Notes under the pieces: model-generated
What the model was told of the DNA's origin: nothing
Seen by the model: the letters and a program-made list of their open reading frames with translations, nothing else
Databases searched by the model: none
Program-made: the position numbers and the translations under genes
Shown: one piece after another, positions 15,931-63,577 of the stretch
Layout of the letters: each line of letters starts with the position of its first letter
How positions within the stretch are numbered: position 1 is the first letter of the stretch
NCBI RefSeq assembly: GCF_003987135.1
Contig: NZ_PIPJ01000008.1
Span: 1 to 64,000 of the forward strand
Direction: 5' to 3'
Length of the DNA stretch: 64,000 bases
Source: Aliidiomarina iranensis
Lineage (GTDB): Bacteria > Pseudomonadota > Gammaproteobacteria > Enterobacterales > Alteromonadaceae

Positions 15931-16005
15931 GAGTTAAAACGAAGTGAGTTAAAACGAAGTGAGTTAAAACGAAGTGAGTTAAAACGAAGTGAGTTGAAAC
16001 AAGAT
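15931..16005. repeat. 15-bp tandem repeat, four perfect copies and one degenerate
   Basis: GAGTTAAAACGAAGT occurs exactly at 15931, 15946, 15961 and 15976. A fifth, decayed copy (GAGTTGAAACAAGAT) starts at 15991. The array lies 36 nt past the 3' end of the tRNA-Arg gene and upstream of oadG. Exact identity of four copies implies recent expansion. Confidence 0.95.
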
Positions 16006-16040
16006 AGTGCTGAGTTTTTATAACTCAAGGAGGGAATCAA

Positions 16041-16117
16041 TGGCGCGCTCGGGAGGATTCGAACCTCCGACCGCCTGGTTCGTAGCCAGGTACTCTATCC
16101 AGCTGAGCTACGAGCGC
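16041..16117 (-). tRNA. tRNA-Arg(ACG), copy 1
   Basis: 77 nt with encoded CCA. The acceptor stem GCGCTCG pairs with CGAGCGC. The anticodon loop CTACGAA has anticodon ACG, normally edited to ICG. Sequence is identical to the copy at 16174-16250. Position after csrA and tRNA-Ser matches the argV cluster of E. coli. Confidence 0.98.
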
Positions 16118-16173
16118 GTATTGATCCTATTGCATGTGATTTTTCAATCACCAAGTTGCAGAGCGTTTTGAAT

Positions 16174-16250
16174 TGGCGCGCTCGGGAGGATTCGAACCTC
16201 CGACCGCCTGGTTCGTAGCCAGGTACTCTATCCAGCTGAGCTACGAGCGC
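16174..16250 (-). tRNA. tRNA-Arg(ACG), copy 2
   Basis: 77 nt, identical to the copy at 16041-16117, CCA encoded. Transcribed with tRNA-Ser from the promoter at 16440-16467. Confidence 0.98.
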
Positions 16251-16329
16251 GTCACATAACAATTTCAAGTAAGAATTAAGCTGCTGTTGAAGCTAGCTAC
16301 TTTCTTTCTATCAACCATCTTTTCAAAAC

Positions 16330-16422
16330 TGGCGGTGAGAGAGGGATTCGAACCCTCGATAGGGCTATAAACCCTATACTCCCTTAGCAGGGGAGCGCCT
16401 TCAGCCGCTCGGCCACCTCACC
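16330..16422 (-). tRNA. tRNA-Ser(GCT)
   Basis: 93 nt with a long variable arm (TATAGGGTTTATAGCCCTA) typical of tRNA-Ser. Anticodon GCT reads AGC/AGU. CCA is encoded. First gene of the tRNA-Ser-Arg-Arg transcript, equivalent in place to serV of E. coli. Confidence 0.98.
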
Positions 16423-16439
16423 GCAACTTGTGGGCACGA

Positions 16440-16467
16440 ATGATAGCGATTTGAGCGAGCATGTCAA
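16440..16467 (-). promoter_or_regulatory. Sigma-70 promoter of the tRNA-Ser-Arg-Arg cluster
   Basis: On the minus strand TTGACA (16462-16467) and TATCAT (16440-16445) are 16 nt apart. The -10 box lies 17 nt from the mature tRNA-Ser 5' end. The -35 box is a perfect consensus. Confidence 0.8.
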
Positions 16468-16552
16468 ACGCTTTTTCAACTTTGCACTTCTAACTGCGGT
16501 ATATTTAAGCATTATGCTTAAATTTTGCTAGTTTTCATTCATTTTATAAGAG

Positions 16553-16573
16553 AAAAGCCGGCATTGCCGGCTT
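16553..16573 (-). terminator. Terminator of csrA
   Basis: AAGCCGGC (16555-16562) and GCCGGCTT (16566-16573) form an 8-bp stem with a 3-nt loop. On the minus strand TTTTCTCTT follows. It lies about 50 nt past the csrA stop and separates csrA from the tRNA promoter. Confidence 0.85.
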
Positions 16574-16624
16574 CTTATTTCTTTCTAAATTTCTCGAGAT
16601 TTGCGGAGCCAAAACTACAAAAAA

Positions 16625-16813
16625 CTAATCAGTGTTATCTGAATCGTCTTTCTCTGCTTGGATTCGCATGTAAATCTCTTCACGATGAACTGAAACATCT
16701 TTCGGAGCATTCACACCGATGCGTACTTGGTTACCCTTTACGCCCAAGACAGTGACCGTGACGTCATCGCCTATCATTAATGTCTCTCCGACACGTCGCG
16801 TCAATATTAGCAT
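16625..16813 (-). CDS. csrA: Carbon storage regulator CsrA
   Basis: CsrA is a dimeric RNA-binding protein that blocks or stabilises mRNAs at GGA motifs, often in hairpin loops over the ribosome binding site. The 62-residue product begins [20 protein letters not shown] and has [19 protein letters not shown] and [10 protein letters not shown], including the RNA-contacting Leu4 and Arg44-type residues. Its own ribosome binding site contains a GGA (AAAGGAGCAG then ATG), consistent with autoregulation. A 7-bp hairpin (16842-16862) sits in the leader. Confidence 0.98.
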
Positions 16814-16841
16814 CCATCTGCTCCTTTCATGTTAGCTTCTC

Positions 16842-16862
16842 GTGCGTCTATCAACGACGCAC
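16842..16862 (-). promoter_or_regulatory. Hairpin in the csrA leader
   Basis: GTGCGTC (16842-16848) and GACGCAC (16856-16862) form a 7-bp stem with a 7-nt loop. No T-run follows on the minus strand, so it is not an alaS terminator. It may shape the csrA 5' leader; function is inferred only from position. Confidence 0.4.
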
Positions 16863-16962
16863 TACAACAGAAGCCGTGAAATAGTATCAATTTGCCTAGA
16901 TTTCGCGATATGACGATCTTCATATTTCGCTATGATTTACCTATAGCATCGTACGAGAAGCC

Positions 16963-19566
16963 TTACAGCGCACTCTCAAGCCAATGTTTGGCAGCTGCTA
17001 ACGCAGCATCTAAATTTTCAGGTTGGGTGCCACCAGCTTGAGCCATATCTGGCCGGCCACCACCTTTGCCACCAACTTTTTCGGCAGCTACATTTACTAG
17101 GTCACCCGCTTTAACTTTACCGGTTAAATTCTTCGTAACCCCAACGATTAAACTTACCTTATCGTCTTGGCGGAGGCCGAGTACAACAATACCCTCGCCA
17201 ATTCGATTTTTCAGATCGTCAACCATTTCGCGCAAAGCCTTAGCTTCTGTATTGTGAACTTCCGCTACAATAACTTTAACGCCGTGTATCTCACTTGCGG
17301 TATCCAGTAAAGATGCGCCAGCTTGTGCAGATGCTTGCTTTTGCAACTCCGCAAGATCTTTCTCTAGTTGTTTTTGCTTTCCTAGCAGCAACTCAATACG
17401 ATCCGCTAATGCGCTGGGATCACTCTTTAATAAGCTTGCCGCAGTTAAAAGCTTCTGTTGCTGAGCTTGTGTATAAGCTACTGCACCCGCCCCTGTAACC
17501 GCATCAATACGGCGAATACCCGATGCAATTCCAGATTCAGCAACAATGCGAAAACTACCTATATCACCCGTGCGCTCAACGTGAGTACCACCACAAAGTT
17601 CCAACGAGTAATCGCTCATTTGAACGACACGCACGTTATCCGCATATTTTTCGCCAAATAACGCCATTGCACCGCGTGCTTTGGCTTCTTCCAAAGGCAA
17701 TACATCGGTTGCCAACGGGCTATTCAAGCGAATTTGCTCGTTCACCTGTGTTTCAATCGCTTGTAACTCGGCATCGGTAACCGGTTGTGGATGGGCAAAA
17801 TCGAAACGTAAGCGCTGTTCATTTACCAACGAACCTTTCTGAGCAACATGATCACCCAAAATATTTCGCAGTGCAGCATGAATCAGGTGAGTAGCTGAGT
17901 GGTTACGCCGAATCGCCCAGCGCCTTTCATCATCAACCACAGCAAGCACGGTATCGCCTACCCGCAGATCGCTATCAGCGGTGCCATGGTGGCCAATAGC
18001 CTTACCAATATACTGAGTATCCGCCACGGTATAAACCGGTTCGCCGGCTACTTCGAGCACACCAATATCGCCAACTTGGCCACCGCTCTCGGCGTAAAAA
18101 GGTGAGTTGTTCAATACGATAATACCGGTATCACCTGATTTAAGCTCGCCAACCGATTCCCCGTTGGCAAAAATCTCAACGATTTTGGCTTCACTCTCAT
18201 AGGCACTGTAGCCCTCAAAATCGGAAACTACTTCAGATTGCAAACGTTCATTATAATCGGCACCGAATTGCGAGGCCTGTTGGGCTCTTGCTCGTTGTTC
18301 GGCCATCGCCTGCTCAAAACCCGCTTCATCTAACCCAAAGCCACGTTCGCGCAAAATATCAGCGGTTAAATCGTAAGGAAAGCCATAAGTATCGTACAAT
18401 TTAAAAGCAACATCGCCAGCTAACACGCCTGCTTCGGGTAGTTGCGCCACTTCGTCTTCTAACAAACTCATACCGCGTTGCAAGGTACGTGCGAATTGTT
18501 GTTCTTCCTGCAGCAATGCCTTTTCAATTTGCTTTTGCGCAGCTGCTAATTCTGGGAATGCTTCGCCCATTAAACGGACAAGCTCGGCAACTAACGTATG
18601 GAAAAACGGTTCGCTGGCGCCGAGTTTCGAACCATGGCGCACAGCGCGGCGAATAATACGGCGCAATACGTATCCACGGCCCTCATTCGAGGGTAAAACA
18701 CCATCAGCAATTAAAAAGGAACAGGAACGAATATGATCGGCAATTACACGCAGTGATTGTGCATTTAAGTCATCAGTGCCAACCGCCGCAGCGGCCGCTT
18801 TAATAAGGGCAACAAAGGTATCGGTTTCATAGTTCGAATGCACATTCTGCAATACCGCAGCAATGCGCTCTAAGCCCATACCGGTATCTACTGAAGGCTT
18901 AGGTAGCGGCTCCATGGAACCATCAGCTTGGCGGTTGAACTGCATAAACACCAAGTTCCAGATTTCAATATAACGATCACCATCTTCTTCCGGTGTTCCC
19001 GGCGGCCCGCCCCACACGTCTTCACCGTGGTCATAGAAAATTTCAGAGCATGGTCCACAAGGGCCCGTATCACCCATTTGCCAAAAATTATCTTTAGCGC
19101 CTATCCGGCTAATACGATCGTGAGGCACGCCAATTTCATCAGCCCAAATATCGTAAGCTTCGTCATCTTCTTCAAAAACAGTAACCCAAAGCTTCTCTTT
19201 TGGTAATTGCAGCTCTTCGGTTAAGAACGACCAGGCATACTGAATTGCTTCGCGCTTGAAATAATCACCAAAGCTAAAATTACCGAGCATCTCAAAGAAA
19301 GTATGGTGGCGCGCCGTGTAGCCCACATTCTCTAGATCGTTATGCTTACCACCGGCACGCACACAGCGCTGAGAACTGGTTGCACGCGTATAATCACGCT
19401 TATCTGAGCCCAAGAACACATCTTTAAACGGCACCATTCCCGCATTGGTAAATAGCAGCGTGGCATCATTACCCGGAATGAGCGAAGAACTTTGCACAAC
19501 CTGATGGCCACGCTCAGCAAAGAAATTCAAAAAAGCCGTACGGATCTCGGCGCTTGTCATGCTCAT
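16963..19566 (-). CDS. alaS: Alanyl-tRNA synthetase
   Basis: AlaRS charges tRNA-Ala and edits Ser and Gly mischarging. At 867 residues it has full family length. The class II core starts with [20 protein letters not shown] and holds [15 protein letters not shown]; the editing domain has the zinc motif [12 protein letters not shown] and [11 protein letters not shown]; the C-terminal C-Ala domain ends [10 protein letters not shown]-like ([16 protein letters not shown]). It lies between recX and csrA as in E. coli. Confidence 0.98.
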
Positions 19567-19628
19567 AAATACTACCCTGCCTCAAGTTCGAATCTTCGGT
19601 ATATGCTAAATTTTATGGCGCGATCTTC

Positions 19629-20138
19629 TCACAAAATGGCCACTTCGTCATCATCTTCCGCCGCTGCAATCGCAGCATATACTTGCTCTGCGGTGAAGCC
19701 ACGTTGGGCTAAAAACCGCTGGCGTTTAGCCCGTTCTTTTGCATCTAATTGGCGAAAATTACCGGCTTTTGCAAAGCGCCGTTGATAGCGATCTTTGGCT
19801 AGTTCTCGCCAATCAGGCGCGCTAGTGGCAAACACTTCCTCAATTTCCAAATCAGAAAGGCCTTTTTGGCTCATTTCCATACGAATTCGCAAAGGCCCAT
19901 ACCCTTGCTCCACGCGTTGCCGAAAGAAACTTGCCGCGAACCGTTCGTTTGATTGCCATTGGCGTTCTTGCAAGCGTGCTAAAACGCGTTTTATGGCTTC
20001 AACATCGAAGCCTTTGTGTTCAAGTTTACGCCGTAACTCATAATCGCTGTGTTCTCTGCGGCTGAGAAGATCCACAGCCCGATGTTCAATCGAACTCTCA
20101 TCATTCGGATCTTTTGGCGGTTTTGGCACACGATTCAA
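19629..20138 (-). CDS. recX: Regulatory protein RecX
   Basis: RecX binds RecA filaments and inhibits RecA. The 169-residue protein has the three-helix repeats of the family: AVDLLSRREHSDYELRRKL, then GFDVEAIKRVLARLQERQ and FAASFFRQRVEQGYGPLRIR. A basic C-terminal domain ends in an acidic tail (EDDDEVAIL). alaS follows by 62 nt as in E. coli. The expected recA is not upstream; a SIMPL-domain gene lies there, 12 nt away on the same strand. Confidence 0.93.
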   Translation of the reverse strand: MNRVPKPPKDPNDESSIEHRAVDLLSRREHSDYELRRKLEHKGFDVEAIKRVLARLQERQWQSNERFAASFFRQRVEQGYGPLRIRMEMSQKGLSDLEIEEVFATSAPDWRELAKDRYQRRFAKAGNFRQLDAKERAKRQRFLAQRGFTAEQVYAAIAAAEDDDEVAIL

Positions 20139-20150
20139 AAGGTTAACCCA

Positions 20151-20924
20151 CTACTGAAAAATAAATTTCACACTTACCGATACTGATAATTGTTGTTGCC
20201 CTACTTCGGTAGCCGTATCCCGTGTACGCAAGGCCATGGAACGCTCTGCATAAGCCGGCGCGGCCCCATGTTCTACCACTTCATGCACGCGAGCAATAGT
20301 GCGGTTACTCGCCTCAGCCAACTCTCTCGCTTTTTGCCACGCTTGGGCCATGGCATCAGCGCGAGCTTCGGCGTACAACGGAGAAGGGTCCGCTACTTGA
20401 AACTGCACCTGCTCAACACGGCCAATATCCGCCGCCAAGGCTTGATCAATAATTACATCGAAGTTTGCAATATCATCGAGCTGCACTTTCACTGACCGGC
20501 TTACCCGATAGCCCAAAAATTGCTGCTCACCATCACGATAATTATACCGAGGGGAAACATCGAGTTGCCAACTGCTAATATTCTCTCGCGGCACTTGCAA
20601 TCCATCCAGCACCTCTAAAAACGTAAGTGTGGTGTTATCCACGGCCTGCTTAAGCACCCCGAGTTCAGTACCTTCTTCAACAATTACAAAGCTTAAACGT
20701 GCTTGATCTGGAATACCCAAGGCCGAGCCTGTTGCCTGCACTTGCACAGTATCCATCACTGCTGCCGTTCCAGAAGCTTGCCCACTCGATTGCCCACAAC
20801 CTCCGAGAGCCAGTGCGAATAACAGGAGCAAAGAATAAGGTAAAAATTTGTTCACATGTAATGCCTTTCTCGCCTCAACGGGGGCTGCTGCGTTAATACG
20901 CGAACTATGGTAAATCGAATTCAT
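20151..20924 (-). CDS. SIMPL-domain (DUF541) lipoprotein
   Basis: The mature part is a SIMPL/DUF541 domain, a periplasmic or outer-membrane fold of unclear role, related to E. coli YggE: VQVQATGSALGIPDQARLSF, then ISSWQLDVSPRYNYRDGEQQ, YRVSRSVKVQL and LSVSVSVKFIF at the end. A lipobox LGGC follows a hydrophobic run near residues 28-41. ATG at 20924 has a strong AAGGAG site with 6-nt spacing but gives a 27-residue polar extension before the signal. A GTG further in (HVNKFLPY, with AAGG upstream) would give a normal lipoprotein signal. 257 residues from the ATG. Confidence 0.82.
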   Translation of the reverse strand: MNSIYHSSRINAAAPVEARKALHVNKFLPYSLLLLFALALGGCGQSSGQASGTAAVMDTVQVQATGSALGIPDQARLSFVIVEEGTELGVLKQAVDNTTLTFLEVLDGLQVPRENISSWQLDVSPRYNYRDGEQQFLGYRVSRSVKVQLDDIANFDVIIDQALAADIGRVEQVQFQVADPSPLYAEARADAMAQAWQKARELAEASNRTIARVHEVVEHGAAPAYAERSMALRTRDTATEVGQQQLSVSVSVKFIFQ

Positions 20925-21023
20925 GGCCTACTCCTTGGTTATTTCCTAAATTAAGCTTACCAGCAAGATTGCTGCTCACGTAAAGAATGAGCTACAGAGC
21001 AAGATTAAATTACTCCCTTAACC

Positions 21024-22214: not shown

Positions 22215-22219
22215 ACTGC

Positions 22220-23919: not shown

Positions 23920-23924
23920 GCCAA

Positions 23925-24749: not shown

Positions 24750-24800
24750 ATGCTGTTTCCTAATTAGTTATCTTGTTGGCTCAAAAGAACCCTGTTCAAT

Positions 24801-25421: not shown

Positions 25422-25423
25422 CC

Positions 25424-26487: not shown

Positions 26488-26517
26488 GTTCTGGTGTGTT
26501 TAGTTCTAGTGTGCTCA
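26488..26517. repeat. 15-bp tandem repeat, two copies
   Basis: GTTCTGGTGTGTTTA (26488-26502) and GTTCTAGTGTGCTCA (26503-26517) differ at three positions. A third, weaker match (GTTCTGTACTACTCG) follows. Confidence 0.7.
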
Positions 26518-26588
26518 GTTCTGTACTACTCGCATACAACTCGCGTTCAACTCATTCTCCAAGGTTTCACAGCTTTTTGAAAAACCTA

Positions 26589-26652: not shown

Positions 26653-26697
26653 TTGTAAACGCACAGTTTGTAAACATTCGTTTTGTAATTGTTTGTG
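26653..26697. repeat. 15-bp tandem repeat, three diverged copies
   Basis: TTGTAAACGCACAGT, TTGTAAACATTCGTT and TTGTAATTGTTTGTG are contiguous at 26653, 26668 and 26683. The first 6-8 bases are conserved, the rest decayed. Confidence 0.7.
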
Positions 26698-26708: not shown

Positions 26709-26750
26709 CGCAACAATTTTCGAGCAACAATTTTTCGAACAACAATGTTT
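26709..26750. repeat. 15-bp tandem repeat, three copies
   Basis: CGCAACAATTTT, CGAGCAACAATTTTT and CGAACAACAATGTTT are contiguous. The shared part is CAACAAT. It ends about 90 nt upstream of trpL. Confidence 0.7.
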
Positions 26751-26839
26751 CCCATTACAAAAGCATCAACGTATACCCTTTAATTTGTAACGAGCCCGCC
26801 AGAAAGGTTGGGGTTAAACTGTTAAGAGAAACGCACAAT

Positions 26840-26896
26840 ATGAACCAATTCGCATCTGTACAACATCATTGGTGGTGGCACTTCCTTCGCGGGTAG
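26840..26896 (+). CDS. trpL: trp operon leader peptide
   Basis: The 18-residue frame MNQFASVQHHWWWHFLRG has three consecutive Trp codons, the hallmark of a tryptophan attenuator. AAGAGAA upstream of the ATG could serve as ribosome binding site. A strong terminator hairpin follows at 26950-26982, then trpE. Ribosome stalling at the Trp codons when charged tRNA-Trp is scarce would favour readthrough; this is known biology of such leaders and inferred here. Confidence 0.95.
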   Translation: MNQFASVQHHWWWHFLRG

Positions 26897-27094: not shown

Positions 27095-28852
27095 ATGCTT
27101 GGGAACGAAACAACCAGCACATCGTTAAAGCAGTTACAAACACTGGGAAATCTTTTTCCGATTTCGGTGGCTACGCAATATCAAGCCGACCCGGTTGACG
27201 TACTAAAGCGCCTTGCACACAGTGGCGGTGAGCACATTCTGTTGGAATCAGCAGAAATTGATTCACGGCAAAATCTCAAAAGCCTGTTTATGATCGACGC
27301 TTCCTTGAAGCTTGTTTGTAGAGGCCAGCAGGTAACGGTTCAGGCGCTTAGTGAAAACGGTGAATGCATTTTAAGTTGGTTACGAGCAGAGCTAAATGAG
27401 TTTTTAATCGAAGATGAAGCCAGCGCTAACACCAACTCTAAGGCTAACGCAGGCAAGAGGCAGTGTGTGTTCGAATTTACACTCCCCAAGAGCGATTTAA
27501 CCGAGCAAGAGCGTTTATCAGCACCGGCCAATACCTTGCCGTTGCGCACACTGCAACAACAGTTAACCGCTTTACAACCGCACCCTTTCGCCATCTTTTT
27601 AGCCGGCGTTTTTGCCTACGATTTGTTAGCTACATTCGAGCAGCTTCCGGCCGTAGCCGAAGGCATTAACGATTGCCCTGACTATCAATTCTATTTGGCC
27701 GAAACCCTGCTCATAATGGACCATGCAGCGCAACAAACGGAACTGCTTGGGGTTCTCGCCAGCGGTAACAACGCCGAATACAGGCACCAACAACTATGCC
27801 AGCGCTTAGGCGAATTAATGAGCCGCATGCAGGCACCTTTTAGCGGTGGTGCTGATCTCTTTTCAACGCATAGCGCGCCAAAACAAGAGCATAGCGCGCC
27901 AAAACAAGAGCAAAGCGAACCTAAGCACAGTTCCGGGGCAACAGCCAAAACAACAAGAGCAAAGCTTGATTTCGCTAAAATAACCAGCCACCCGAAACGC
28001 GAAGAATTTAAAGCCATTGTTTTGGATATGAAGAAGCACATTGCCGCCGGTGATATTTTCCAAGTTGTGCCCTCGCGCAACTTCACGTTGCCTTGTACAA
28101 ACGCCTTACTTAGTTACGCTGAATTAAAAAAGAGCAACCCAAGCCCTTACATGTTTTATCTCCGCACTGCTGAGTTCGAACTCTTTGGTGCTTCACCCGA
28201 ATCCGCATTGAAATTTACCGCCAGTAATCGGCAGGTAGAACTTTACCCTATCGCCGGCACCCGCAGCCGAGCGCGTGATGCTGCGGGTAACATTAAGCCC
28301 GATCAGGATTCCCGCATTGAACTTGCTTTGCGGCAAGATCAAAAGGAGCTGGCCGAGCACATGATGCTGGTTGATTTGGCCCGCAATGATCTAGCTCGCA
28401 TTGCCCGCACAGGCAGCCGCTACGTAGCTGATTTGTTGAAAGTTGATCGCTATTCCCATGTGATGCATTTGGTATCGAGAGTAGTAGCCACGTTGCGCGA
28501 TGATCTCGATGCCATCGATGCCTACCGCGCCTGCATGAACATGGGCACCTTAGTTGGCGCGCCAAAAATTAGTGCAGCCAGCCTTATTCGAGGTGCCGAA
28601 GGCTGCCGCCGAGGCAGTTACGGCGGCGCCGTTGGCTACCTGAACGGAGCCGGTGATATGGATACCTGTATTGTGATTCGTTCAGCTTATGTGAAAAACG
28701 GCAACGCTATCGTGCAAGCCGGCGCAGGTGTTGTATTTGATTCCGATGCTGATGCCGAGGTGGCGGAAACCGAACAAAAAGCTGGCGCAGTGCTCCAGGC
28801 AATTTTGCATGCCAATGAAGCACTTTCCGCCGAAAATGAGGTAACTGCATGA
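27095..28852 (+). CDS. trpE: Anthranilate synthase component I
   Basis: TrpE makes anthranilate from chorismate and ammonia supplied by TrpG. The 585-residue protein is longer than E. coli TrpE (520). The N-terminal feedback motif LLES (in HILLESAEI) is present, so tryptophan inhibition is likely. The chorismate-binding domain has IFQVVPSRNFTLP, SPYMFYLRT, GASPESALKF, PIAGTRSR and LVDLARNDLARI. The extra length is a low-complexity linker near residues 255-290 with HSAPKQE repeats. The stop overlaps trpG by 4 nt. No strong ribosome binding site precedes the ATG. Confidence 0.97.
   Translation: MLGNETTSTSLKQLQTLGNLFPISVATQYQADPVDVLKRLAHSGGEHILLESAEIDSRQNLKSLFMIDASLKLVCRGQQVTVQALSENGECILSWLRAELNEFLIEDEASANTNSKANAGKRQCVFEFTLPKSDLTEQERLSAPANTLPLRTLQQQLTALQPHPFAIFLAGVFAYDLLATFEQLPAVAEGINDCPDYQFYLAETLLIMDHAAQQTELLGVLASGNNAEYRHQQLCQRLGELMSRMQAPFSGGADLFSTHSAPKQEHSAPKQEQSEPKHSSGATAKTTRAKLDFAKITSHPKREEFKAIVLDMKKHIAAGDIFQVVPSRNFTLPCTNALLSYAELKKSNPSPYMFYLRTAEFELFGASPESALKFTASNRQVELYPIAGTRSRARDAAGNIKPDQDSRIELALRQDQKELAEHMMLVDLARNDLARIARTGSRYVADLLKVDRYSHVMHLVSRVVATLRDDLDAIDAYRACMNMGTLVGAPKISAASLIRGAEGCRRGSYGGAVGYLNGAGDMDTCIVIRSAYVKNGNAIVQAGAGVVFDSDADAEVAETEQKAGAVLQAILHANEALSAENEVTA
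27869..27931 (+). repeat. 21-nt in-frame tandem repeat in trpE
   Basis: Two identical 21-nt copies (27869-27889 and 27890-27910) encode HSAPKQE twice; a third degraded copy gives QSEPKHS. The repeat falls between the N-terminal regulatory region and the catalytic core. Confidence 0.95.
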
Positions 28853-30490: not shown

Positions 30491-32043
30491 GCTTTGTAGT
30501 TCATTCCGATACGCCAACCGTATTACAAGAAATTGTTGCTAAGCGCCAGCAACGGCTAGCAGCAATGCGTGAGCATTATCCTGAAGCGGAGATCGCAGCC
30601 AGTGCCCTTGCAAGCTCGCGGCCTGTGCGTGATTTCACTGCAGCACTTGCCGAGCCGGGCGCACAATTTATTTTGGAGTGCAAGAAAGCATCGCCTTCCA
30701 AAGGGCTTATCCGAGAAAACTTCGATCCAGTAGCAATTGCTCGGGTTTATGGCAGTTATGCAGCGGCTATTTCCGTGTTAACTGAGCCCGATTATTTCCA
30801 AGGTGATTTTGCCTATTTACAGGCGGTAAGCGCACAGGTAAACACCCCTGTGTTGTGCAAAGATTTTATTGTTAGTACTTATCAAGTTGATCTTGCCCGA
30901 TACTTTGGGGCTGATGCCATTTTGCTGATGCTTTCGGTGTTATCGGATGATGAATACCGGGCGTTGGCAGCGCGAGCGGAACAACTTGGCTTGCATATTC
31001 TAACCGAGGTAAGCGATGCTGAGGAAATGCACCGTGCCGCGGCTTTAGAAGCCCGAGTGATTGGTGTTAACCACCGCAATTTGCGCGATCTTTCTGTGGA
31101 TTTAAACCGTAGCCAAGAACTAGCAGCACTAGCGCCAAAAAATGCCTTGCTGATTGCCGAATCAGGTATCGAAAATAACCGCCAAGTGCGCAGTATCAGC
31201 CCGCATGTTGATGGCTTCTTAGTTGGGGGTGCGCTAACTGCGCAAGATGATGTTGATATGGCTTGCCGAGCGCTGATTTACGGTGAGCACAAGGTTTGCG
31301 GTATCACCAGCGAAGCACAAGCCATTGCTGCGCGCAGTGCCGGCGCAGTTTATGCGGGGTTAATTTTTGCTAAACGCTCACCGCGGGCGGTTACTCAAAC
31401 GCAGGCAAAGCAAATCTGCCAAACGAGTGGTTTACAGTTTGTGGGGGTTTTCAGCCTCGATGATTATCCCCATGCAACGGAGCACGATACAACGGAAACG
31501 GCAGAGGCCATTGCAAAACTTGCCATCGATTTGGATTTAGCGGCCGTGCAATTACATGATGTTACCGAAAATCAGGTGATTACCAAGCTAGCGGCACTGT
31601 TGCAAGTGCAAGCACAAAGCCAGGTGCATTCAAGCTCGCGAGTAAAAGCGCGTGGAAAAGATAACTTAGTAACAGGTAACTCAAAAACAGCTAACTCAGC
31701 AACAGAGAACCAGCACAAGGTTATTGAGATTTGGCAGGCTCATAGTGTGAAACCTGAGGAATCAGCGATTAACACAGCACCATTTACGCCAGAAGTTGCA
31801 CGCATATTGTTTGATCATGGCCGCGGTGGCAGCGGCCAAACCTTTGATTGGCAATTGTTACCGGCAACGCCAGAGCAACGGCAACACATTCAACTCGCCG
31901 GCGGTTTAAACAGAGAGAATATTGCAAAAGCTGCAGCACAAGGCTGCCGTGGTTTAGATATTAATTCAGGATTAGAGCGCCAGCCGGGGCATAAAGATCC
32001 GGCATGGTTGCAACAAGCATTTCGCGCGATTCGGTTATATTAA
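30487..32043 (+). CDS. trpCF: Bifunctional indole-3-glycerol-phosphate synthase / phosphoribosylanthranilate isomerase
   Basis: Two barrels are fused as in E. coli. TrpC covers about residues 1-265 ([60 protein letters not shown]). TrpF follows ([50 protein letters not shown]). The fusion is 518 residues against about 450 in E. coli. The extra part is inside TrpF near residues 375-420, a low-complexity insert with 5-residue repeats. It lies between the LHD strand and WQAHSV, where a surface loop is expected. Confidence 0.97.
31672..31716 (+). repeat. 15-nt in-frame tandem repeat in trpCF
   Basis: ACAGGTAACTCAAAA, ACAGCTAACTCAGCA and ACAGAGAACCAGCAC are contiguous. They encode a five-residue repeat: [15 protein letters not shown] (reading frame offset by one base). 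The period equals that of the intergenic arrays. Confidence 0.8.
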
Positions 32044-34113: not shown

Positions 34114-34193
34114 GAGTTCAAGAGTTCAGGAGTTCAGGAGTTCAAGAGTTCAAGAGTTCAAGAGTTCAAGAGTTCAAGAGTTCAGGAGTTCAC
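34114..34193. repeat. 8-bp tandem repeat, ten copies
   Basis: GAGTTCAR is repeated ten times in 80 nt, with the last base A or G (C in the final copy). It lies between the trpA stop and the terminator at 34194, so it is in the 3' UTR of the trp transcript. It has no reading-frame role. Arrays like this vary in copy number through slippage. Confidence 0.97.
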
Positions 34194-36555: not shown

Positions 36556-36559
36556 CACT

Positions 36560-36604
36560 GCGCGCTACGTAATTGTACGCTAGGTAATTGCGCGCTACGT
36601 AAAT
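36560..36604. repeat. 15-bp tandem repeat, three copies
   Basis: GCGCGCTACGTAATT, GTACGCTAGGTAATT and GCGCGCTACGTAAAT are contiguous from 36560, 4 nt after a terminator. They lie between convergent genes. Confidence 0.88.
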
Positions 36605-42111: not shown

Positions 42112-42187
42112 TGGCGTCCCCTAGGGGATTCGAACCCCTGTTACCGCCGTGAAAGGGCGGTGTCCTAGGCCTCTAGACGAAGGGGAC
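42112..42187 (-). tRNA. tRNA-Glu(TTC), copy 1
   Basis: 76 nt, acceptor GTCCCCT, anticodon TTC in CTTTCAC, CCA encoded. Identical to the copies at 42226 and 42327. Confidence 0.98.
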
Positions 42188-42225
42188 TAAGTATATACAC
42201 AGCACTTCAAAACATATCACAAAAT

Positions 42226-42301
42226 TGGCGTCCCCTAGGGGATTCGAACCCCTGTTACCGCCGTGAAAGGGCGGTGTCCTAGGCCTCTAGACGAAGGGGA
42301 C
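42226..42301 (-). tRNA. tRNA-Glu(TTC), copy 2
   Basis: 76 nt, identical to the neighbouring copies; spacers of 38 and 25 nt separate the three. Confidence 0.98.
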
Positions 42302-42326
42302 GCAGCATTTGTGAGTGTAAGCAGAT

Positions 42327-42402
42327 TGGCGTCCCCTAGGGGATTCGAACCCCTGTTACCGCCGTGAAAGGGCGGTGTCCTAGGCCTCTAGACGAAGGGG
42401 AC
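42327..42402 (-). tRNA. tRNA-Glu(TTC), copy 3
   Basis: 76 nt, identical to the other two copies. It follows tRNA-Ala(GGC) in the same transcript. Confidence 0.98.
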
Positions 42403-46280: not shown

Positions 46281-46356
46281 TGGTGGATGGTACTGGGCTC
46301 GAACCAGTGACCCCCGCCTTGTAAGGGCGGTGCTCTCCCAGCTGAGCTAACCATCC
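46281..46356 (-). tRNA. tRNA-Val(TAC), copy 1
   Basis: 76 nt, acceptor GGATGGT paired with ACCATCC, anticodon TAC in CTTACAA, CCA encoded. Identical to the copies at 46414 and 46552. Confidence 0.98.
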
Positions 46357-46413
46357 GGGAAACTTGCTTGTACTAATTACGCCAAAAACTAAACTTGGCA
46401 CAACCTAAAAATT

Positions 46414-46489
46414 TGGTGGATGGTACTGGGCTCGAACCAGTGACCCCCGCCTTGTAAGGGCGGTGCTCTCCCAGCTGAGCTAACCATCC
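46414..46489 (-). tRNA. tRNA-Val(TAC), copy 2
   Basis: 76 nt, identical to the flanking copies; spacers of 57 and 62 nt. Confidence 0.98.
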
Positions 46490-46551
46490 TGGGAATTAAC
46501 TAAAATCATTATTTGTTAGATTTTAAATTAAATAGCAACTTTTGGCGAATT

Positions 46552-46627
46552 TGGTGGATGGTACTGGGCTCGAACCAGTGACCCCCGCCTTGTAAGGGCG
46601 GTGCTCTCCCAGCTGAGCTAACCATCC
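46552..46627 (-). tRNA. tRNA-Val(TAC), copy 3
   Basis: 76 nt, identical to the others and first in the transcript. Matches valU-valX-valY of E. coli in anticodon and position near gltX. Confidence 0.98.
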
Positions 46628-52339: not shown

Positions 52340-52416
52340 TCCCCAGTAGCTCAGTTGGTTAGAGCGGTGGACTGTTAATCCATGTGTCGTTGGTTCGAAT
52401 CCAACCTGGGGAGCCA
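52340..52416 (+). tRNA. tRNA-Asn(GTT), copy 1
   Basis: 77 nt, acceptor TCCCCAG paired with CTGGGGA, anticodon GTT in CTGTTAA, CCA encoded. Identical to the second copy 26 nt downstream. Confidence 0.98.
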
Positions 52417-52442
52417 CTTGCTTAACACCCTTCAATATCAAT

Positions 52443-52519
52443 TCCCCAGTAGCTCAGTTGGTTAGAGCGGTGGACTGTTAATCCATGTGTCGTTGGTTCG
52501 AATCCAACCTGGGGAGCCA
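52443..52519 (+). tRNA. tRNA-Asn(GTT), copy 2
   Basis: 77 nt, identical to the first copy. No clear terminator follows before the convergent PAP2 gene. Confidence 0.98.
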
Positions 52520-53310: not shown

Positions 53311-53417
53311 CCCGGGCCGTAAACCCGGATAATAGGCGCATGTAATAAATTTCACGAGTGCATGTTTGCACGCGATCAATTTCTTTGCCCGCACGGAATG
53401 TTCGCGTGCAGGTTTTT
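53311..53417 (+). promoter_or_regulatory. Hairpin-rich leader upstream of rsxA
   Basis: CCGGG/CCCGG (53312-53316/53324-53328), GTGCA/TGCAC (53358-53362/53367-53371) and GCACG/CGTGC (53391-53395/53405-53409) can each form a hairpin; the last is followed by GAGG-like A and five T (53413-53417). GCACGCG (53368-53374) can instead pair with CGCGTGC (53403-53409), excluding the last two. This looks like an attenuator layout, but no leader peptide or known riboswitch is visible. Confidence 0.35.
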
Positions 53418-53445
53418 CATGGGCAGGCATTGCAAAAGGTTGTAG

Positions 53446-57660: not shown

Positions 57661-58352
57661 TGTTAAAGAATATGCAAAAAAACGGGTTGATTCTGGGCGC
57701 TTTTGCTATTGCTGCTACATCGCTCGTAGTAGCCACACAATACCTCACCGCCGATCGCATTGCCGAACAACAACGTGGCGAATTATTACGCACCCTAAAC
57801 ACACTGATTCCAGCCGCACAGCATGACAATGATTTGTATGCTGATTGCACTCTAATTGCAGCACCTGATGCGCTTGGTGCGCCTTTGCAACCGGTGTATC
57901 GTTCGCGCCTAGCGGGTGAAGGCAACGCCTTAGCAATACAAGCCACAGCTACCGATGGTTATAGCGGTAACATTCATTTTCTCGTAGCGATTAATGATAA
58001 TGGATTAGTACAAGGTGTGCGGGTGCTGCAACACAAAGAAACCCCCGGCCTAGGCGATAAAATTGAACTCAAGAAAAGTGATTGGATTTTATCCTTTGAT
58101 GGCGAACGAGTGCGCAGCGAAAACGATTCACGATGGGCAGTACGCCGAGATAATGGCATGTTCGATCAATTCACGGGCGCCACAATCACCCCACGGGCGT
58201 TGGTGAACGCGGTACGCAAAGCGGTTTGGTATGGCCAAGAAAACAGTGCTGAGCTCTTTGCAGCCGCAAGTAACTGTTATACCGAGAGCACGCAAACCGC
58301 TGCAGCCGCCATGAATGAGTTAGAACCGAATATAACGGAGCTGGGCGAATGA
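57660..58352 (+). CDS. rsxG: Electron transport complex subunit RsxG/RnfG
   Basis: From ATG at 57660, overlapping the rsxD TAA, the protein is 230 residues with one N-terminal helix ([20 protein letters not shown]). The periplasmic FMN-binding domain has [31 protein letters not shown] and the flavinylation motif [15 protein letters not shown]. Overlaps rsxE by 4 nt. Confidence 0.97.
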
Positions 58353-59047
58353 ACAGTGAGTATCGCACTTTAAGCAAAGATGGCCTTTGGGAAAACAACC
58401 CGGCACTAGTGCAATTACTGGGGCTCTGCCCACTGTTGGCTGTTTCCGGCACCGTAACCAACGCGCTTGGTTTAGGGATTGCCACCCTATTAGTGCTGGT
58501 GGGCTCAAACATTACGGTATCTCTTGTGCGCAACTTTGTGCCCAATGAAATTCGTATTCCGGTGTTTGTTATTGTTATCGCCACTTTTGTAACCCTAGTA
58601 GAACTGACCATGAATGCCTTTACCTACGGCTTGTATATGGCGTTAGGTATTTTCATTCCCTTGATTGTAACCAATTGTGCCATCATCGGCCGCGCCGAAG
58701 CTTACGCCTCAAAGAACAATTGGTACAAAGCGGGCTTTGATGGCCTCATGATGGGCCTTGGTTTTGCTGCCGTTTTAGTGGCGCTAGGCGCCATCCGTGA
58801 ACTCATCGGCCAAGGCACCTTATTTGATGGCGCTGAGCTGTTGCTCGGAGAATGGGCAAGCTCGCTAAGAATTCAGCTTATTGAGTTTGATTACCCCCTA
58901 CTCCTCGCCATATTGCCGCCGGGCGCTTTTATCGGCCTAGGCTTTTTAATTGCTGGAAAAAACTGGCTTGATGAGAAAAAACGGGAAAAGCTGGCGAAAG
59001 CGCCAGTGGAGAAGGCGCAACGCGCTCGCGTAACCCATGTTTCATAA
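58349..59047 (+). CDS. rsxE: Electron transport complex subunit RsxE/RnfE
   Basis: The 232-residue membrane subunit is a paralogue of Rsx[21 protein letters not shown] with the conserved Cys, [20 protein letters not shown], and [19 protein letters not shown]. About six helices and a basic C-terminal tail. Last of the rsx genes; nth follows by 15 nt as in E. coli. Confidence 0.97.
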
Positions 59048-59062
59048 AAAGAAGAGCAGCGC

Positions 59063-59698
59063 ATGAACCAACAAAAACGTATTGAAATATTAAAACGCTT
59101 GCGGGATAACAATCCGAATCCAACAACGGAATTGAATTTTAGTAACCCCTTTGAGCTACTCATTGCAGTATTGCTCTCAGCGCAAGCTACCGATGTGGGT
59201 GTAAATAAAGCCACTGGCCCCCTATTTGCGGTTGCCAATAATCCTGCTGATATGCTCGCACTCGGTGTGGCTGGCGTAAAAAACTATATAAAAACTATCG
59301 GCTTGTTCAACACCAAAGCGGAAAACACTATTAAAACCTGCCGTATCCTTGTTGAACAACACAATGGTGAAGTGCCCGAAGATCGCGCCGCACTAGAGGC
59401 TTTACCCGGTGTTGGCCGGAAAACCGCAAACGTAGTGCTGAATACCGCCTTTGGTTGGCCCACCATTGCTGTTGATACCCATATTTTTCGGGTGAGCAAC
59501 CGAACTAAGTTAGCGAAAGGAAAAACTGTTGATGCGGTAGAACAAAAATTGCTCAAGGTCGTTCCTGCAGAATTTAAAGTGGATGTGCATCATTGGCTCA
59601 TTCTCCACGGCCGCTATACCTGTGTGGCGCGCAAACCACGCTGCGGCTCCTGCATTATTGAAGATTTGTGCGAATTTAAAGATAAAATCGAACTATAA
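59063..59698 (+). CDS. nth: Endonuclease III
   Basis: Nth excises oxidised pyrimidines and nicks abasic sites. The 211-residue protein has the helix-hairpin-helix EALPGVGRKTANVVLN with the catalytic Lys, the catalytic Asp in AVDTHIFRVSNR, and the 4Fe-4S motif CVARKPRCGSCIIEDLC. Placement after rsxE suggests shared expression under redox stress. Confidence 0.98.
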   Translation: MNQQKRIEILKRLRDNNPNPTTELNFSNPFELLIAVLLSAQATDVGVNKATGPLFAVANNPADMLALGVAGVKNYIKTIGLFNTKAENTIKTCRILVEQHNGEVPEDRAALEALPGVGRKTANVVLNTAFGWPTIAVDTHIFRVSNRTKLAKGKTVDAVEQKLLKVVPAEFKVDVHHWLILHGRYTCVARKPRCGSCIIEDLCEFKDKIEL

Positions 59699-59807
59699 CG
59701 CCTATTTTTAACGTTCTGGCCTCGCTGCTATTGGCATCTTTGGCCGTTGTTATGGTTCGGCTTTAATACCCGTACATATCAATGTGCCGCGCTCACGCAT
59801 ATTTTGT

Positions 59808-59852
59808 TCATGTATGTTGCTCTCATGCATGTTGCACTCATGTATCTTGCAC
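59808..59852. repeat. 15-bp tandem repeat, three copies
   Basis: TCATGTATGTTGCTC, TCATGCATGTTGCAC and TCATGTATCTTGCAC are contiguous. They lie in the 209-nt gap between nth and the amidohydrolase gene, 55 nt before its start, possibly in its promoter or leader. Confidence 0.9.
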
Positions 59853-59907
59853 TGGGAACGGCGCGCTGTAATACTGAGCTTATGCCCACACATTTGGAGT
59901 GACCACA

Positions 59908-61293
59908 ATGAAGCTCACTATGATTGCTTTAATCACGCTGGCGAGTACTTTTGCCGCAACCACTACTATTCAAAACAGCTATGCGCAAAATTCTGCTCAA
60001 GGCTCTGCTCAAGGTTCTGCGCAAAGCTCTGCCCAAGCAATGAGCTCCGGCGCGAACGCAACATCATCGGCGCAACACGCCAGTATCAGCGATGCCTTGG
60101 AGCAACGTGTTATTGAATGGCGCCGTGATCTGCATCAGCACCCAGAATTAAGTAATCGCGAGTTTCGTACCTCGGGTGTGGTGGCAGATCACCTTAGATC
60201 ACTTGGCCTAGAAGTCACTACCGATATCGCCCATACCGGTGTGGTGGCTATTCTTCGTGGCGCACAACCGGGGCCCACCGTAGCCTTACGTGCAGATATG
60301 GATGCTCTGCCGGTACAAGAGCTTACCGATGTGCCGTTCGCATCAACCGCAACGGGCGAATATCGCGGCCGAGAAGTATCGGTGATGCATGCCTGCGGCC
60401 ATGATTTACATGTGGCAATGTTAATGGGTGCCGCTGAGCACTTGGCCGGCATGCAAGAGCAAATCGCTGGCGATATCATGTTTATCTTCCAACCTGCCGA
60501 GGAAGGCGCGCCCGAGGGTGAGGAAGGCGGTGCGGAACTCATGCTCAAAGAAGGGTTGTTCGATATCGCAAAACCCGATGCCGTATTCGGTATTCATGTT
60601 TGGTCGGCTGCTACAACGGGCCACATTGGCTATCGCCAAGGCCCGCTAATGGCCTCCTCCGATCGCTTCGAGATTCGGGTTCTGGGTGAACAAACTCACG
60701 GCTCACGCCCTTGGGGCGGAATCGACCCGATAGTAGTGGCTAGCCAAATTATAAACAATGTACAAACCATTGTTAGCCGGCAGGTAAATATCACAAAGGC
60801 GCCTGCTGTTGTAAGTTTTGGTATTGTTGAAGGCGGTGTGCGCAACAATATTATTCCCGATGAAGTTTACTTAGAGGGTACTATTCGCAATTTTGATATG
60901 GCTATTCGCAGCGATATTTTTGCCAAACTCACCAACGCTGCCGAGATGACAGCCGCAGCCAGTGGCGCTCGCGCTGAAGTAACTATTGATGAGGGCTACC
61001 CGGTTACGGTAAATAATCCTGATTTGGTAACACAAATGCTGCCTACCACCGAACGAATTGTTGGTAGGGAAAACATGTATGAAGCCGATTTAGTAACCGG
61101 CGCTGAAGATTTTTCATTTTATGCTTTAGAAGTACCGAGTATGTTTGTGTTTCTGGGCATTACGCCACCGGGCCAAGATCCGGCCACAGCGCCAAGTAAT
61201 CATTCTCCCTACTTTTACGCCGACGAAAACTCGTTACGCGTGGGTACTGAGCTTTTAATAAATTGGGCGTTGGATTATCCAAGCACGCGCTGA
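59908..61293 (+). CDS. Secreted M20-family amidohydrolase
   Basis: The 461-residue precursor from ATG at 59908 (GGAG 8 nt upstream) starts with a signal peptide, MKLTMIALITLASTFAA, then a low-complexity stretch AQGSAQGSAQSSAQA. The mature part is an M20D metallopeptidase/amidohydrolase: WRRDLHQHPELSNREFRTS, ALRADMDALPVQE, MHACGHDLHVAML (metal ligands), FQPAEEGAPEGEEGG (catalytic Glu), EGTIRNFD and TGAEDFSFYA. Family members hydrolyse N-acyl amino acids or similar; the export signal suggests periplasmic or secreted action. Monocistronic, 32 nt before rnt. Confidence 0.9.
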   Translation: MKLTMIALITLASTFAATTTIQNSYAQNSAQGSAQGSAQSSAQAMSSGANATSSAQHASISDALEQRVIEWRRDLHQHPELSNREFRTSGVVADHLRSLGLEVTTDIAHTGVVAILRGAQPGPTVALRADMDALPVQELTDVPFASTATGEYRGREVSVMHACGHDLHVAMLMGAAEHLAGMQEQIAGDIMFIFQPAEEGAPEGEEGGAELMLKEGLFDIAKPDAVFGIHVWSAATTGHIGYRQGPLMASSDRFEIRVLGEQTHGSRPWGGIDPIVVASQIINNVQTIVSRQVNITKAPAVVSFGIVEGGVRNNIIPDEVYLEGTIRNFDMAIRSDIFAKLTNAAEMTAAASGARAEVTIDEGYPVTVNNPDLVTQMLPTTERIVGRENMYEADLVTGAEDFSFYALEVPSMFVFLGITPPGQDPATAPSNHSPYFYADENSLRVGTELLINWALDYPSTR

Positions 61294-61325
61294 GATTTTA
61301 AATATAAACAAATACAAGGATATTC

Positions 61326-62015
61326 ATGAGTGATTCACCGGCCGAGAGCACGAGTAACGGCACCAAGCCTGTAGCATTAAAAGACCGTTTTCGTGGCTAT
61401 TTACCCGTTGTGATTGATGTGGAAACCGCTGGCTTTAACGCAAAAACCGACGCGCTACTGGAAATCGCCGCCGTTATCGTTGATTTTGATGATAACGGCC
61501 AATTGGTGCCCATCGCAACACATCATGCGCATATTAAGCCCTTTGCAGGTGCCAATATCGAGCAAGCCGCAATTGATTTTAATGGCATTGAGCCGTTCAG
61601 TGAGTTGCGTGGTGCCATTGATGAGGGCGAAGCCTTACGCGATATATTTAAAGCCATACGCAAAGCGCAAAAAGCGGCGGAATGCCAACGTTGTGTGCTC
61701 GTTGGCCATAATGCCACGTTTGATCATGGTTTCGTGATGGCAGCTGCCGAGCGGGCTAACTTGAAGCGCAACCCGTTTCACCCATTTGTTACCTTCGATA
61801 CGGCGGCGTTGGCTGCACTTACTGTTGGGCAAACCGTGTTAGTGAAGGCGTGCCGTGCCGCCGGTATTGCATTTGATAGCAAAGAAGCACACAGCGCTGT
61901 ATATGATACCGAACGCACGGCAGAGCTGTTTTGTTGGATGGTAAACCGCTATCAGCAGTTAGGTGGTTGGCCGCTCACGCAAGATGAGGCAACGGCCGAG
62001 CAGCAAGCTGATTAG
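61326..62015 (+). CDS. rnt: Ribonuclease T
   Basis: RNase T trims 3' ends of tRNA and other stable RNAs. The 229-residue DEDD exonuclease shows [20 protein letters not shown] (Asp, Glu), [13 protein letters not shown] (Asp) and [16 protein letters not shown] (His, Asp). Its neighbourhood with grxD and sodB resembles E. coli. Repeats of GGTACC..AACAGAA (17 nt, two copies at 62037-62070) follow the stop. Confidence 0.97.
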
Positions 62016-62110
62016 CAACATACCTTAGGAATAGAGGGTACCTAACAACAGAAGGTACCCAGTAACAGAAAAGCTAATACCAAATTGAATCGGTGAGCGT
62101 AGGTGGAATC

Positions 62111-62476
62111 TTATTCGCTAGCGCTTTCATCGATTTCTGGCGCCGCCGCAACGACCAATGGTTGCAACTCGCCCTGCTGGAACATTTCCAAAATGATATC
62201 GCATCCACCGATTAGCTCACCGTTCACCCACAATTGGGGAAAGGTTGGCCAATCCGCTATCCGGGGTAATTCAGCGCGGATGTCAGGGTTTTGCAGAATA
62301 TCCACATAAGCAAAAGGTTTACCGCAGGCCATAAGGGCTTGGGAAGCTTGTGCGGAGAAACCACAACTAGGAAGTTTTGGCGAACCCTTCATATACAATA
62401 ACACTGGATTTTCAGCGATTTGCTCGCGAATGCGGGCTTCAGTATCTTGGGTTTGCTCTGGCTGCATATCTTGCAT
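62111..62476 (-). CDS. grxD: Monothiol glutaredoxin Grx4
   Basis: GrxD carries and hands on 2Fe-2S clusters with glutathione. The 121-residue protein has the CGFS active site (KLPSCGFSAQASQAL), WPTFPQLWVNGELIGGCDI with the cis-Pro and GG motifs, and a short acidic tail. The conserved start corresponds to about residue 12, so the N-terminus is slightly longer than usual. Convergent with rnt. Confidence 0.97.
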   Translation of the reverse strand: MQDMQPEQTQDTEARIREQIAENPVLLYMKGSPKLPSCGFSAQASQALMACGKPFAYVDILQNPDIRAELPRIADWPTFPQLWVNGELIGGCDIILEMFQQGELQPLVVAAAPEIDESASE

Positions 62477-62885
62477 AACAACTCCTTAAAATAAAATTAG
62501 GCCGATACTACAGGGTTGGCCACTTGCAATTGTCGGTTTCACCACGTTAGGCGTAACCGAATGCTTATCGCTGCGGTTAGAGCCGTATTGTAACACAAGC
62601 AAGGCCTGCGGATGAACCACCGGTGATTATGAATAAGAATGATTTTAGCCCTTGAAATCCAAAACCCTTGCCTCCATGTATACCCTATTGTTATAGAAAA
62701 TGTGTTAGCCGCTAACTAGTTACCCTCAGGGATATTTAACGGCCGCATTGTTTGTTTCGGCGTACAGCCGCTATAATAAGAAACGAATTTAGGATCACGG
62801 TTCCTTTTGCCCACTTTTTTATTTTAGTTATCTTTGAAATGGGTAATGGGTGCTAGCATTTAGTTAATGAATGGAGAAGCATAAT
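62477..62885. other. Intergenic region between grxD and sodB
   Basis: About 410 nt, no gene seen. It must hold divergent promoters for grxD and sodB. GTTAGC-C-GCTAAC (62704-62716) is a perfect dyad and could be an operator. A weak Fur-like stretch near 62623-62642 is noted but not called. Confidence 0.45.
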
Positions 62886-63467
62886 ATGGCTTTCGAATTA
62901 CCAGCACTTCCTTACGAAAAAAATGCGCTCGAACCACATATTTCTGCCGAAACGCTTGAGTATCACTATGGCAAGCATCATCAAACTTATGTTGATAAGC
63001 TCAACGGTTTGGTTGAAGGCTCTGAGTTTGCCGGTAAATCTCTTGAAGATATCGTAAAAACTTCAAGCGGCGGTGTATTCAATAATGCCGCGCAAATCTG
63101 GAACCACACTTTCTATTGGCATTGCTTAAGCCCAAATGGTGGCGGTGAGCCAACAGGCGCTCTAGCTGAAGCCATTAACAACAAATGGGGTTCATTTGAG
63201 AAGTTTAAAGAAGCCTTCACCACCAGCGCCGTAAACAACTTCGGCTCAAGCTGGACATGGCTTGTGAAAACTAAAGATGGCGGTGTGGATATCGTGAATA
63301 CGAGCAACGCTGAAACCCCAGTAACCAATGAAAACCACGTGCCACTATTAACCGTGGATCTTTGGGAACATGCTTATTACATTGATTACCGGAATGCACG
63401 TCCGAAGTATATGGATGCTTTCTGGTCTTTAGTGAACTGGGAATTTGCCAGCAAAAACTTCGGTTAA
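62886..63467 (+). CDS. sodB: Superoxide dismutase [Fe]
   Basis: SodB dismutes superoxide in the cytoplasm. From ATG at 62886 it is 193 residues, the E. coli length, beginning [20 protein letters not shown], with GGAG 9 nt upstream; an ATG five codons earlier overlaps that site. Metal ligands lie in [22 protein letters not shown], and [11 protein letters not shown]. The [14 protein letters not shown] segment with Gln is typical of iron enzymes. Confidence 0.98.
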
Positions 63468-63521
63468 TTGGTTGGCCCAGCTTAGCATTTGCCGGCGCTC
63501 GCCGGCATAACCTGAGCGAAG

Positions 63522-63577
63522 CACCAGAAACAAAGAACCAGAAACAAAGAACCAGAAACAAAGAACCAGAAACGAAA
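63522..63577. repeat. 14-bp tandem repeat, four copies
   Basis: AACCAGAAACAAAG occurs four times in a row from 63522, with CACC in the first and CGAAA in the last. It ends at the sodB terminator and so lies in the sodB 3' UTR. Confidence 0.93.

What the first reader, a model, noticed from the sequence alone, without database searches (positions are those of the whole stretch)
15931..63577. Many unrelated short tandem arrays share a period of 15 bp
Arrays with different sequences but a 15-bp period occur at 15931-16005, 26488-26517, 26653-26697, 26709-26750, 36560-36604 and 59808-59852, with a 14-bp array at 63522 and an 8-bp one at 34114. All are intergenic. The sequences are not homologous, so the shared feature is the period, not the unit. 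This points to a mechanism that makes 15-bp duplications, such as polymerase slippage or a repair process, rather than spread of one repeat. Some arrays are exact, others decayed, so the process seems ongoing.
Basis: partly seen in the sequence, partly recalled or inferred. Interest (0 to 1): 0.7.

Follow-up and report, generated by a model that had tools for sequence, protein, structure and literature searches.

The report
Recurrent private 12-16 bp tandem duplications
In this bacterium and some close relatives, short stretches of about 12 to 16 DNA letters seem to be duplicated in place again and again, mostly between genes, leaving many unrelated little repeat arrays of similar unit size; the effect is real, but it looks like a mutational habit rather than a new genetic system.

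Summary
The arrays are real, far above shuffles, with unrelated units. "Period 15" is partly a property of this window: in the 25% of the genome read (an Aliidiomarina relative), 28 of 43 intergenic arrays have periods of 12-16 bp, 11 of them 15. The p12-16 rate is 30.6 per 100 kb intergenic here and 32.9 in three close relatives, against 0 in 61 kb of four family/order genomes and 2.3 in Pseudomonas-, Burkholderia-, enteric- and Shewanella-type loci. Against uniqueness: ten other gammaproteobacterial loci (5 in 33 kb) are not significantly lower, and counting all periods, Burkholderia-type loci are nearly as array-rich. None of 11 arrays at orthologous gaps is shared with the relatives that could be compared. 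Coding arrays here (39 of 39) have periods divisible by 3. Convergent gaps are enriched. Short-extension duplications show more junction homology than chance. Best reading: lineage-elevated short tandem duplication by slippage or repair, then copy growth and decay. No Ku match in this genome; MutS, PolA, RecJ and ExoVII are present. The cause was not identified. A mutational signature rather than a system.

The parts
15930..16000 (.). 15-bp array, 4.7 copies of TGAGTTAAAACGAAG, between an oxaloacetate decarboxylase gamma gene and tRNA-Arg
   Evidence: the stretch holding the array is absent from the matching gap of G004, the only relative compared
26488..26522 (.). decayed 15-bp array, 2.3 copies, in the divergent gap upstream of the trp operon
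   Evidence: no array in the G004, G002, G001 gaps
26653..26697 (.). claimed 15-bp array; weak, not reported by TRF or the self-match scan
26710..26751 (.). 15-bp array, 2.9 copies, about 90 bp before a trp leader-like reading frame
   Evidence: no array in the G004, G002, G001 gaps
34114..34192 (.). 8-bp array, 9.9 copies of GAGTTCAA, convergent gap after trpA
   Evidence: the gap is 196 bp here, 20 bp in G004 and 89 bp in G002
36559..36602 (.). 15-bp array, 2.9 copies, 79% matches, convergent gap
   Evidence: no array in the G004, G002, G001 gaps
59808..59853 (.). 15-bp array, 3.1 copies of TCATGTATGTTGCAC, between an endonuclease III-type gene and an M20 peptidase gene
   Evidence: near-empty site in G004, the only relative compared
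63519..63580 (.). 14-bp array, about 4 copies of AAGAACCAGAAACA, before a terminator-like hairpin (by eye) in the convergent gap after a superoxide dismutase gene
   Evidence: G004 has an unrelated 20-bp array in the same gap, G001 none
31662..31705 (+).
   Evidence: between aligned blocks 133 bp here, 37 bp in G004
27868..27917 (+). 21-bp in-frame array inside trpE
   Evidence: between aligned blocks 95 bp here, 41 bp in G004
59977..60037 (+). 12/24-bp in-frame array near the start of the M20 peptidase gene
   Evidence: between aligned blocks 98 bp here, 35 bp in G004

Best explanation
These are products of a mutational process, elevated in part of one clade of this genus, that duplicates about 10-16 bp in tandem at unrelated sites. 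Shown here: the unit-length band, the lack of a common unit, lack of sharing with near relatives at orthologous gaps, periods divisible by three inside genes, and crowding in convergent gaps. Inferred: a first duplication forms by polymerase slippage or by re-ligation of a displaced strand at a nick, often helped by a few bases of homology and without Ku end joining; existing copies then expand by ordinary slippage; point mutations erode them; selection removes those in promoters and those that break reading frames. The arrays themselves probably have no conserved function.
For: Adjacent copies with at most one mismatch in G000, observed (shuffled mean): 10 bp 8 (2.3), 11 bp 2 (0.3), 12 bp 7 (0.3), 13 bp 4 (0), 14 bp 6 (0), 15 bp 6 (0), then 0-1 at each length from 16 to 45; three close relatives: 12 bp 3, 13 bp 3, 14 bp 2, 15 bp 4, 16 bp 2, 20 bp 2. 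Intergenic p12-16 arrays: 28 in 91.6 kb (G000), 14 in 42.6 kb (G004+G002+G001), 0 in 61.5 kb (four family/order genomes). None of 11 arrays of period 10-24 at orthologous gaps (6 of G000, 5 of G004 or G001) is shared with the one to three genomes compared at that gap. Units not clearly related. 39 of 39 coding arrays in G000 have periods divisible by 3. Convergent gaps hold 16 of 41 assignable arrays (43 in all) but 15% of the gap bases, p = 2e-4. Junction extension averages 2.2 bp in 18 short-extension events against 0.70 by chance, P = 0.0008. No Ku match in G000.
Against: G006, inside the same clade, shows 0 arrays in 7.9 kb; its contig matches a metagenome-assembled genome in length, where repeats may collapse. 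Ten other gammaproteobacterial loci have a p12-16 rate not significantly lower (p = 0.17), and Burkholderia-type loci reach 38.1 arrays per 100 kb for all periods against 46.9 here. Coding arrays fit the band only in part: 20 of 39 at 12 or 15 bp, 7 at 21 bp. Junction homology could be inflated by eroded third copies; 17 of 36 events with extension of 8 bp or more and one doubled 7-bp array were dropped before that count. No causal gene difference was found among those tested. Copy-number variation within the species was not observed.
Confidence: 0.66

Rival explanations
1. The arrays are regulatory sites (protein-binding clusters or transcript-end elements) kept by selection, and the common period reflects DNA-helix spacing.
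For: Some sit upstream of operons or beside a terminator-like hairpin (trp, sod); 16 of 41 are in convergent gaps.
Against: Units share no motif clearly beyond permuted units; none of 11 is shared at orthologous gaps; arrays also occur in genes; 12-16 bp is not a multiple of the helical repeat (recalled).
Confidence: 0.08
2. A specific enzyme sets the length: paired nicks about 12-16 nt apart, a repair patch (UvrABC excises 12-13 nt, recalled), or a displaced 5' flap of that size is filled in and re-ligated. A changed flap nuclease part of PolA in this clade could be the cause.
For: Sharp upper edge at 15-16 bp. PolA residue 212, in the 5'-nuclease part (placement recalled), is A in G000, G004, G002 and E in G001, G006, but D in the 12 other genus members.
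Against: The PolA change is one of several substitutions that track the clade; as recalled it is not a catalytic residue; PolA is a full open frame in 17 of 17 genomes. Junction homology above chance favours slippage.
Confidence: 0.2
3. A mobile or spreading minisatellite family.
For: A dispersed 14-bp unit of this kind does exist in genus member G016.
Against: In G000 the units are not clearly related, and two adjacent copies of the strongest 15-bp unit occur at one place only in the whole genome at up to 3 mismatches.
Confidence: 0.03
4. Chance, low complexity or assembly artefact.
For: Array units are more A+T-rich than random intergenic stretches (9.35 against 7.91 bases per unit), and G000 intergenic DNA is A+T-rich (34% G+C).
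Against: Shuffles give almost none; G012, G008 and G014, with intergenic G+C of 39-45%, have 0, 1 and 1 p12-16 arrays, while G004, G002 and G001 at 41-43% have 4, 3 and 7.
Confidence: 0.03

Closest known systems
Tandem repeats of Borg archaeal elements (PMC9879509; passages and the first part of the Results)
   Same: Many short arrays formed independently, recently and in a genome-specific way; rarely conserved in alignable regions of near relatives; coding units divisible by three.
   Different: Borg arrays are perfect by definition, enriched in adenine, and in extrachromosomal elements, with units of 18-36 nt in the four examples I saw; here arrays are often decayed, strand skew is not significant (|A-T| p = 0.06), and they lie in a bacterial genome.
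Bacterial minisatellites / VNTR loci used in strain typing (PMC2884548; passages)
   Same: Small tandem arrays in genomes; change by slippage is recalled, not read there.
   Different: That paper counts motifs of 20 bp or more; I saw no link to a narrow unit-length band or one clade in its passages.
Small tandem duplications at eukaryotic breaks (PMC8355091; passages) and patch-mediated duplications in rice (recalled, Vaughn and Bennetzen; nothing read)
   Same: Short de novo tandem duplications.
   Different: In those passages most depend on end joining with Ku, the rest on polymerase theta with more microhomology; G000 has no Ku match.

Membership tests
Minisatellite loci born by short tandem duplication and slippage | head-to-tail copies of one unit, often with partial end copies | tested here: met
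Minisatellite loci born by short tandem duplication and slippage | arrays absent at orthologous sites of relatives | tested here: met
   0 of 11 shared with the relatives compared
Minisatellite loci born by short tandem duplication and slippage | copy number varies between strains | not testable with these tools
   The genome search holds one genome per species; no strain set was available for this species
Dispersed repeat family | homologous units at many loci | tested here: not met
   (one unit searched genome-wide, all sampled units compared with each other)
Ku-dependent end-joining duplications | Ku protein present | tested here: not met
   no match in G000; 1 of 17 genus genomes (G009) has it
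Mismatch-repair-deficient mutator | MutS lost | tested here: not met
   MutS over the cut-off in 17 of 17 genus genomes
Mismatch-repair-deficient mutator | MutL or MutH lost | not tested
   no search was made

The most novel reading that the evidence does not exclude
A bacterial clade carries a heritable change in replication or repair that makes tandem duplications of a set length (12-16 bp), growing its intergenic DNA and protein linkers and offering a natural bacterial counterpart of flap-nuclease-deficient duplication mutators.
Probability: 0.2. Interest if true: 0.7.

Novelty: new variant of a known kind. Interest (0 to 1): 0.4.

Why it matters
How bacterial minisatellites are born, and why their unit length is what it is, seems poorly known (from recall). 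A clade where births look frequent, unshared and banded in length, beside relatives where they are rare, gives a natural comparison for finding the gene or lesion responsible, and shows a route by which intergenic DNA and protein linkers can grow.

Tried and rejected
Shared motif: GAGTT/AACTC in several units looked suggestive by eye, but k-mer sharing was within or near permuted units. Lag autocorrelation of intergenic DNA: a lag 11-13 excess appears in G000, G004 and G002 and weakly at lag 12 in G008 and G026, so it is not specific to the arrays and adds little. Hairpin potential of units: no difference from shuffled units; strand skew of units: not significant. Y-family polymerases: 2-4 matches in each of 17 genus genomes, no pattern. 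RecJ and ExoVII: in 17 of 17. SbcC: near full-length matches, all under the family cut-off, in 12 of 17, none in G003, G008, G012, G015, G016; all five clade members have it, and the sampled genomes without it are array-poor once the G016 repeat family is set aside, but G014 has it and only one array, and the sample is too small for a conclusion. The flat Pseudomonas period counts probably came from low-complexity runs; a stricter filter left 9 arrays of 46. The Idiomarina fontislapidosi and Aliidiomarina loci L074 and L075 (2.1 and 1.7 kb intergenic; one 21-bp array and none) were left out of the rate table. The first codon-usage gene caller was too weak and was replaced. Literature: 'short tandem duplications', 'intergenic', 'bacteria', 'slippage' together gave no paper; in the listings I saw no description of such a band in this genus; two searches gave eukaryotic or enzyme papers. 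One search ended in a script error after printing its counts; the chance part was rerun.

Full report
Setting. The window is bases 1-64000 of contig 35 of a 2.65-Mb genome, G000. Its alaS protein is 84% identical (best segment) to that of a named Aliidiomarina metagenome genome and 67% to Idiomarina fontislapidosi; records of the genome itself may be left out there. A PolA tree of 17 genus members places G004 as sister, then G002, then G001 with G006. Trp operon genes, tRNA clusters and other ordinary genes surround the arrays.

Check of the observation. Five of the six claimed 15-bp arrays, the 14-bp and the 8-bp array are found by TRF at the stated places; the array at 26653-26697 is not. 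Further arrays lie inside genes, among them a 15-bp one at 31662. With my own gene calls and an ungapped self-match scan, 20 shuffles of the intergenic segments gave a mean of 0.0-0.05 arrays per period at 12-15 bp against 4, 5, 8 and 11 observed.

Period distribution. I read 654,011 of 2,647,903 bases of G000 (window plus 40 stretches). After merging overlaps, 43 intergenic arrays of period 6-40 remain: 28 at 12-16, 3 shorter, 12 longer; 11 at 15. Because a fixed score favours long units, I also counted adjacent near-exact copies directly at each length: observed (shuffled) 10 bp 8 (2.3), 11 bp 2 (0.3), 12 bp 7 (0.3), 13 bp 4 (0), 14 bp 6 (0), 15 bp 6 (0), then at most 1 at any length from 16 to 45. 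The process thus makes units of about 10-16 bp with an upper edge near 16. The window is skewed to 15: 5 of 7 arrays, against 6 of 36 elsewhere (p = 0.008, after the fact).

Lineage. Rates of 12-16 bp intergenic arrays per 100 kb: G000 30.6 (26.9 without the window); G004 20.8 (4 arrays), G002 22.7 (3), G001 69.1 (7), G006 0 (0 in 7.9 kb); other genus members G012 0, G008 7.2 (1), G014 16.6 (1), G016 42.4 (4, all copies of one dispersed 14-bp unit, so not independent). G006, G016, G012, G008 and G014 pooled, G016 included, give 6 in 55 kb (p = 0.02). Four family/order genomes give 0 in 61.5 kb; Pseudomonas-type loci 2.0, Burkholderia-type 5.9, enteric 0, Shewanella/Corallincola 0; ten other gammaproteobacterial loci 15.2 (5), not significantly below G000 (p = 0.17). 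For all periods 6-40 together the picture is less special: G000 46.9, G001 69.1, ten other gammaproteobacterial loci 45.5, Burkholderia-type 38.1, enteric 11.9, Pseudomonas-type 6.0. What sets this clade apart is the 12-16 band, not array density as such. G000 intergenic DNA is A+T-rich (34% G+C), but G004, G002 and G001 (41-43%) resemble the array-poor G012, G008 and G014 (39-45%), so base composition is not the main cause. Samples of the single relatives are small (6 to 19 kb intergenic each).

Independent origin. At orthologous gaps, six G000 arrays (periods 10-24) have no matching array in the one to three relatives that could be compared, and five arrays of G004 or G001 have none in G000 or the others compared; the sod gap holds a 14-bp array in G000 and an unrelated 20-bp one in G004. 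The 8-bp array is likewise missing from the shorter G004 and G002 gaps. The clearest near-empty site is at 59808. Gap lengths otherwise change both ways between G000 and G004. Units are not clearly related.

Where they survive. Convergent gaps hold 16 of the 41 assignable arrays (of 43) but 15% of gap bases (p = 2e-4); in G004, G002 and G001 they hold 2 of 5, 2 of 5 and 2 of 7, small counts that point the same way. In G000 genes, 39 of 39 arrays have periods divisible by three, 20 of them 12 or 15 bp and 7 of them 21 bp; in relatives the rule has exceptions (one 13-bp array of 14 in G004). Both fit removal by selection from promoters and frames (inferred).

How it may arise. Among 36 exact-run events in G000, G004, G002 and G001, I kept 18 with short extension (dropped: 17 with 8 bp or more, read as multi-copy arrays, and one doubled 7-bp array). 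Their junction extension is 0-6 bp, 17 of 18 at 4 bp or less, mean 2.2 bp, 8 of 18 at 3 bp or more; the chance mean is 0.70. This favours slippage with short homology, though eroded third copies could mimic it. Ku is not found in G000; PolA, MutS, RecJ and ExoVII are present in 17 of 17 genus genomes. A PolA residue (212) differs in the clade; this is only a lead, confounded with descent.

Comparison. The nearest published picture I saw is the Borg tandem repeats (PMC9879509; passages and the first part of the Results), which share independent, recent, genome-specific origin and frame filtering but are perfect and adenine-enriched. Bacterial minisatellites in general (PMC2884548, passages) are the known kind. 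I file this as a variant: minisatellite birth with a narrow unit length in one clade.

Limits.

Noticed in passing
L245 7276-7780, L246 16416-16773, L247 2543-2579 (G016): A 14-bp unit (TGCGTTGGCTACGA) is dispersed at several loci of G016 and was found in none of the 16 other genus genomes searched (two copies, up to 2 mismatches); in L246 it recurs every 81 bp. It looks like a separate species-specific repeat family.
   Followed up: partly
window 26840-26896: A trp leader-like reading frame with three adjacent Trp codons lies upstream of trpE (read; the name is recalled); short arrays sit just before it.
   Followed up: no
window 16041-16250, 42112-42402, 46281-46627, 52340-52519: tRNA genes of one anticodon in tandem (2 Arg, 3 Glu, 3 Val, 2 Asn), two Glu copies within an exact 101-bp repeat.
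   Followed up: no
L231, L232 (G009): Only one of 17 genus genomes has Ku matches, as two neighbouring frames.
   Followed up: no
genus genomes: Near full-length SbcC matches (all under the family cut-off) are missing in G003, G008, G012, G015 and G016 but present in the other 12.
   Followed up: no
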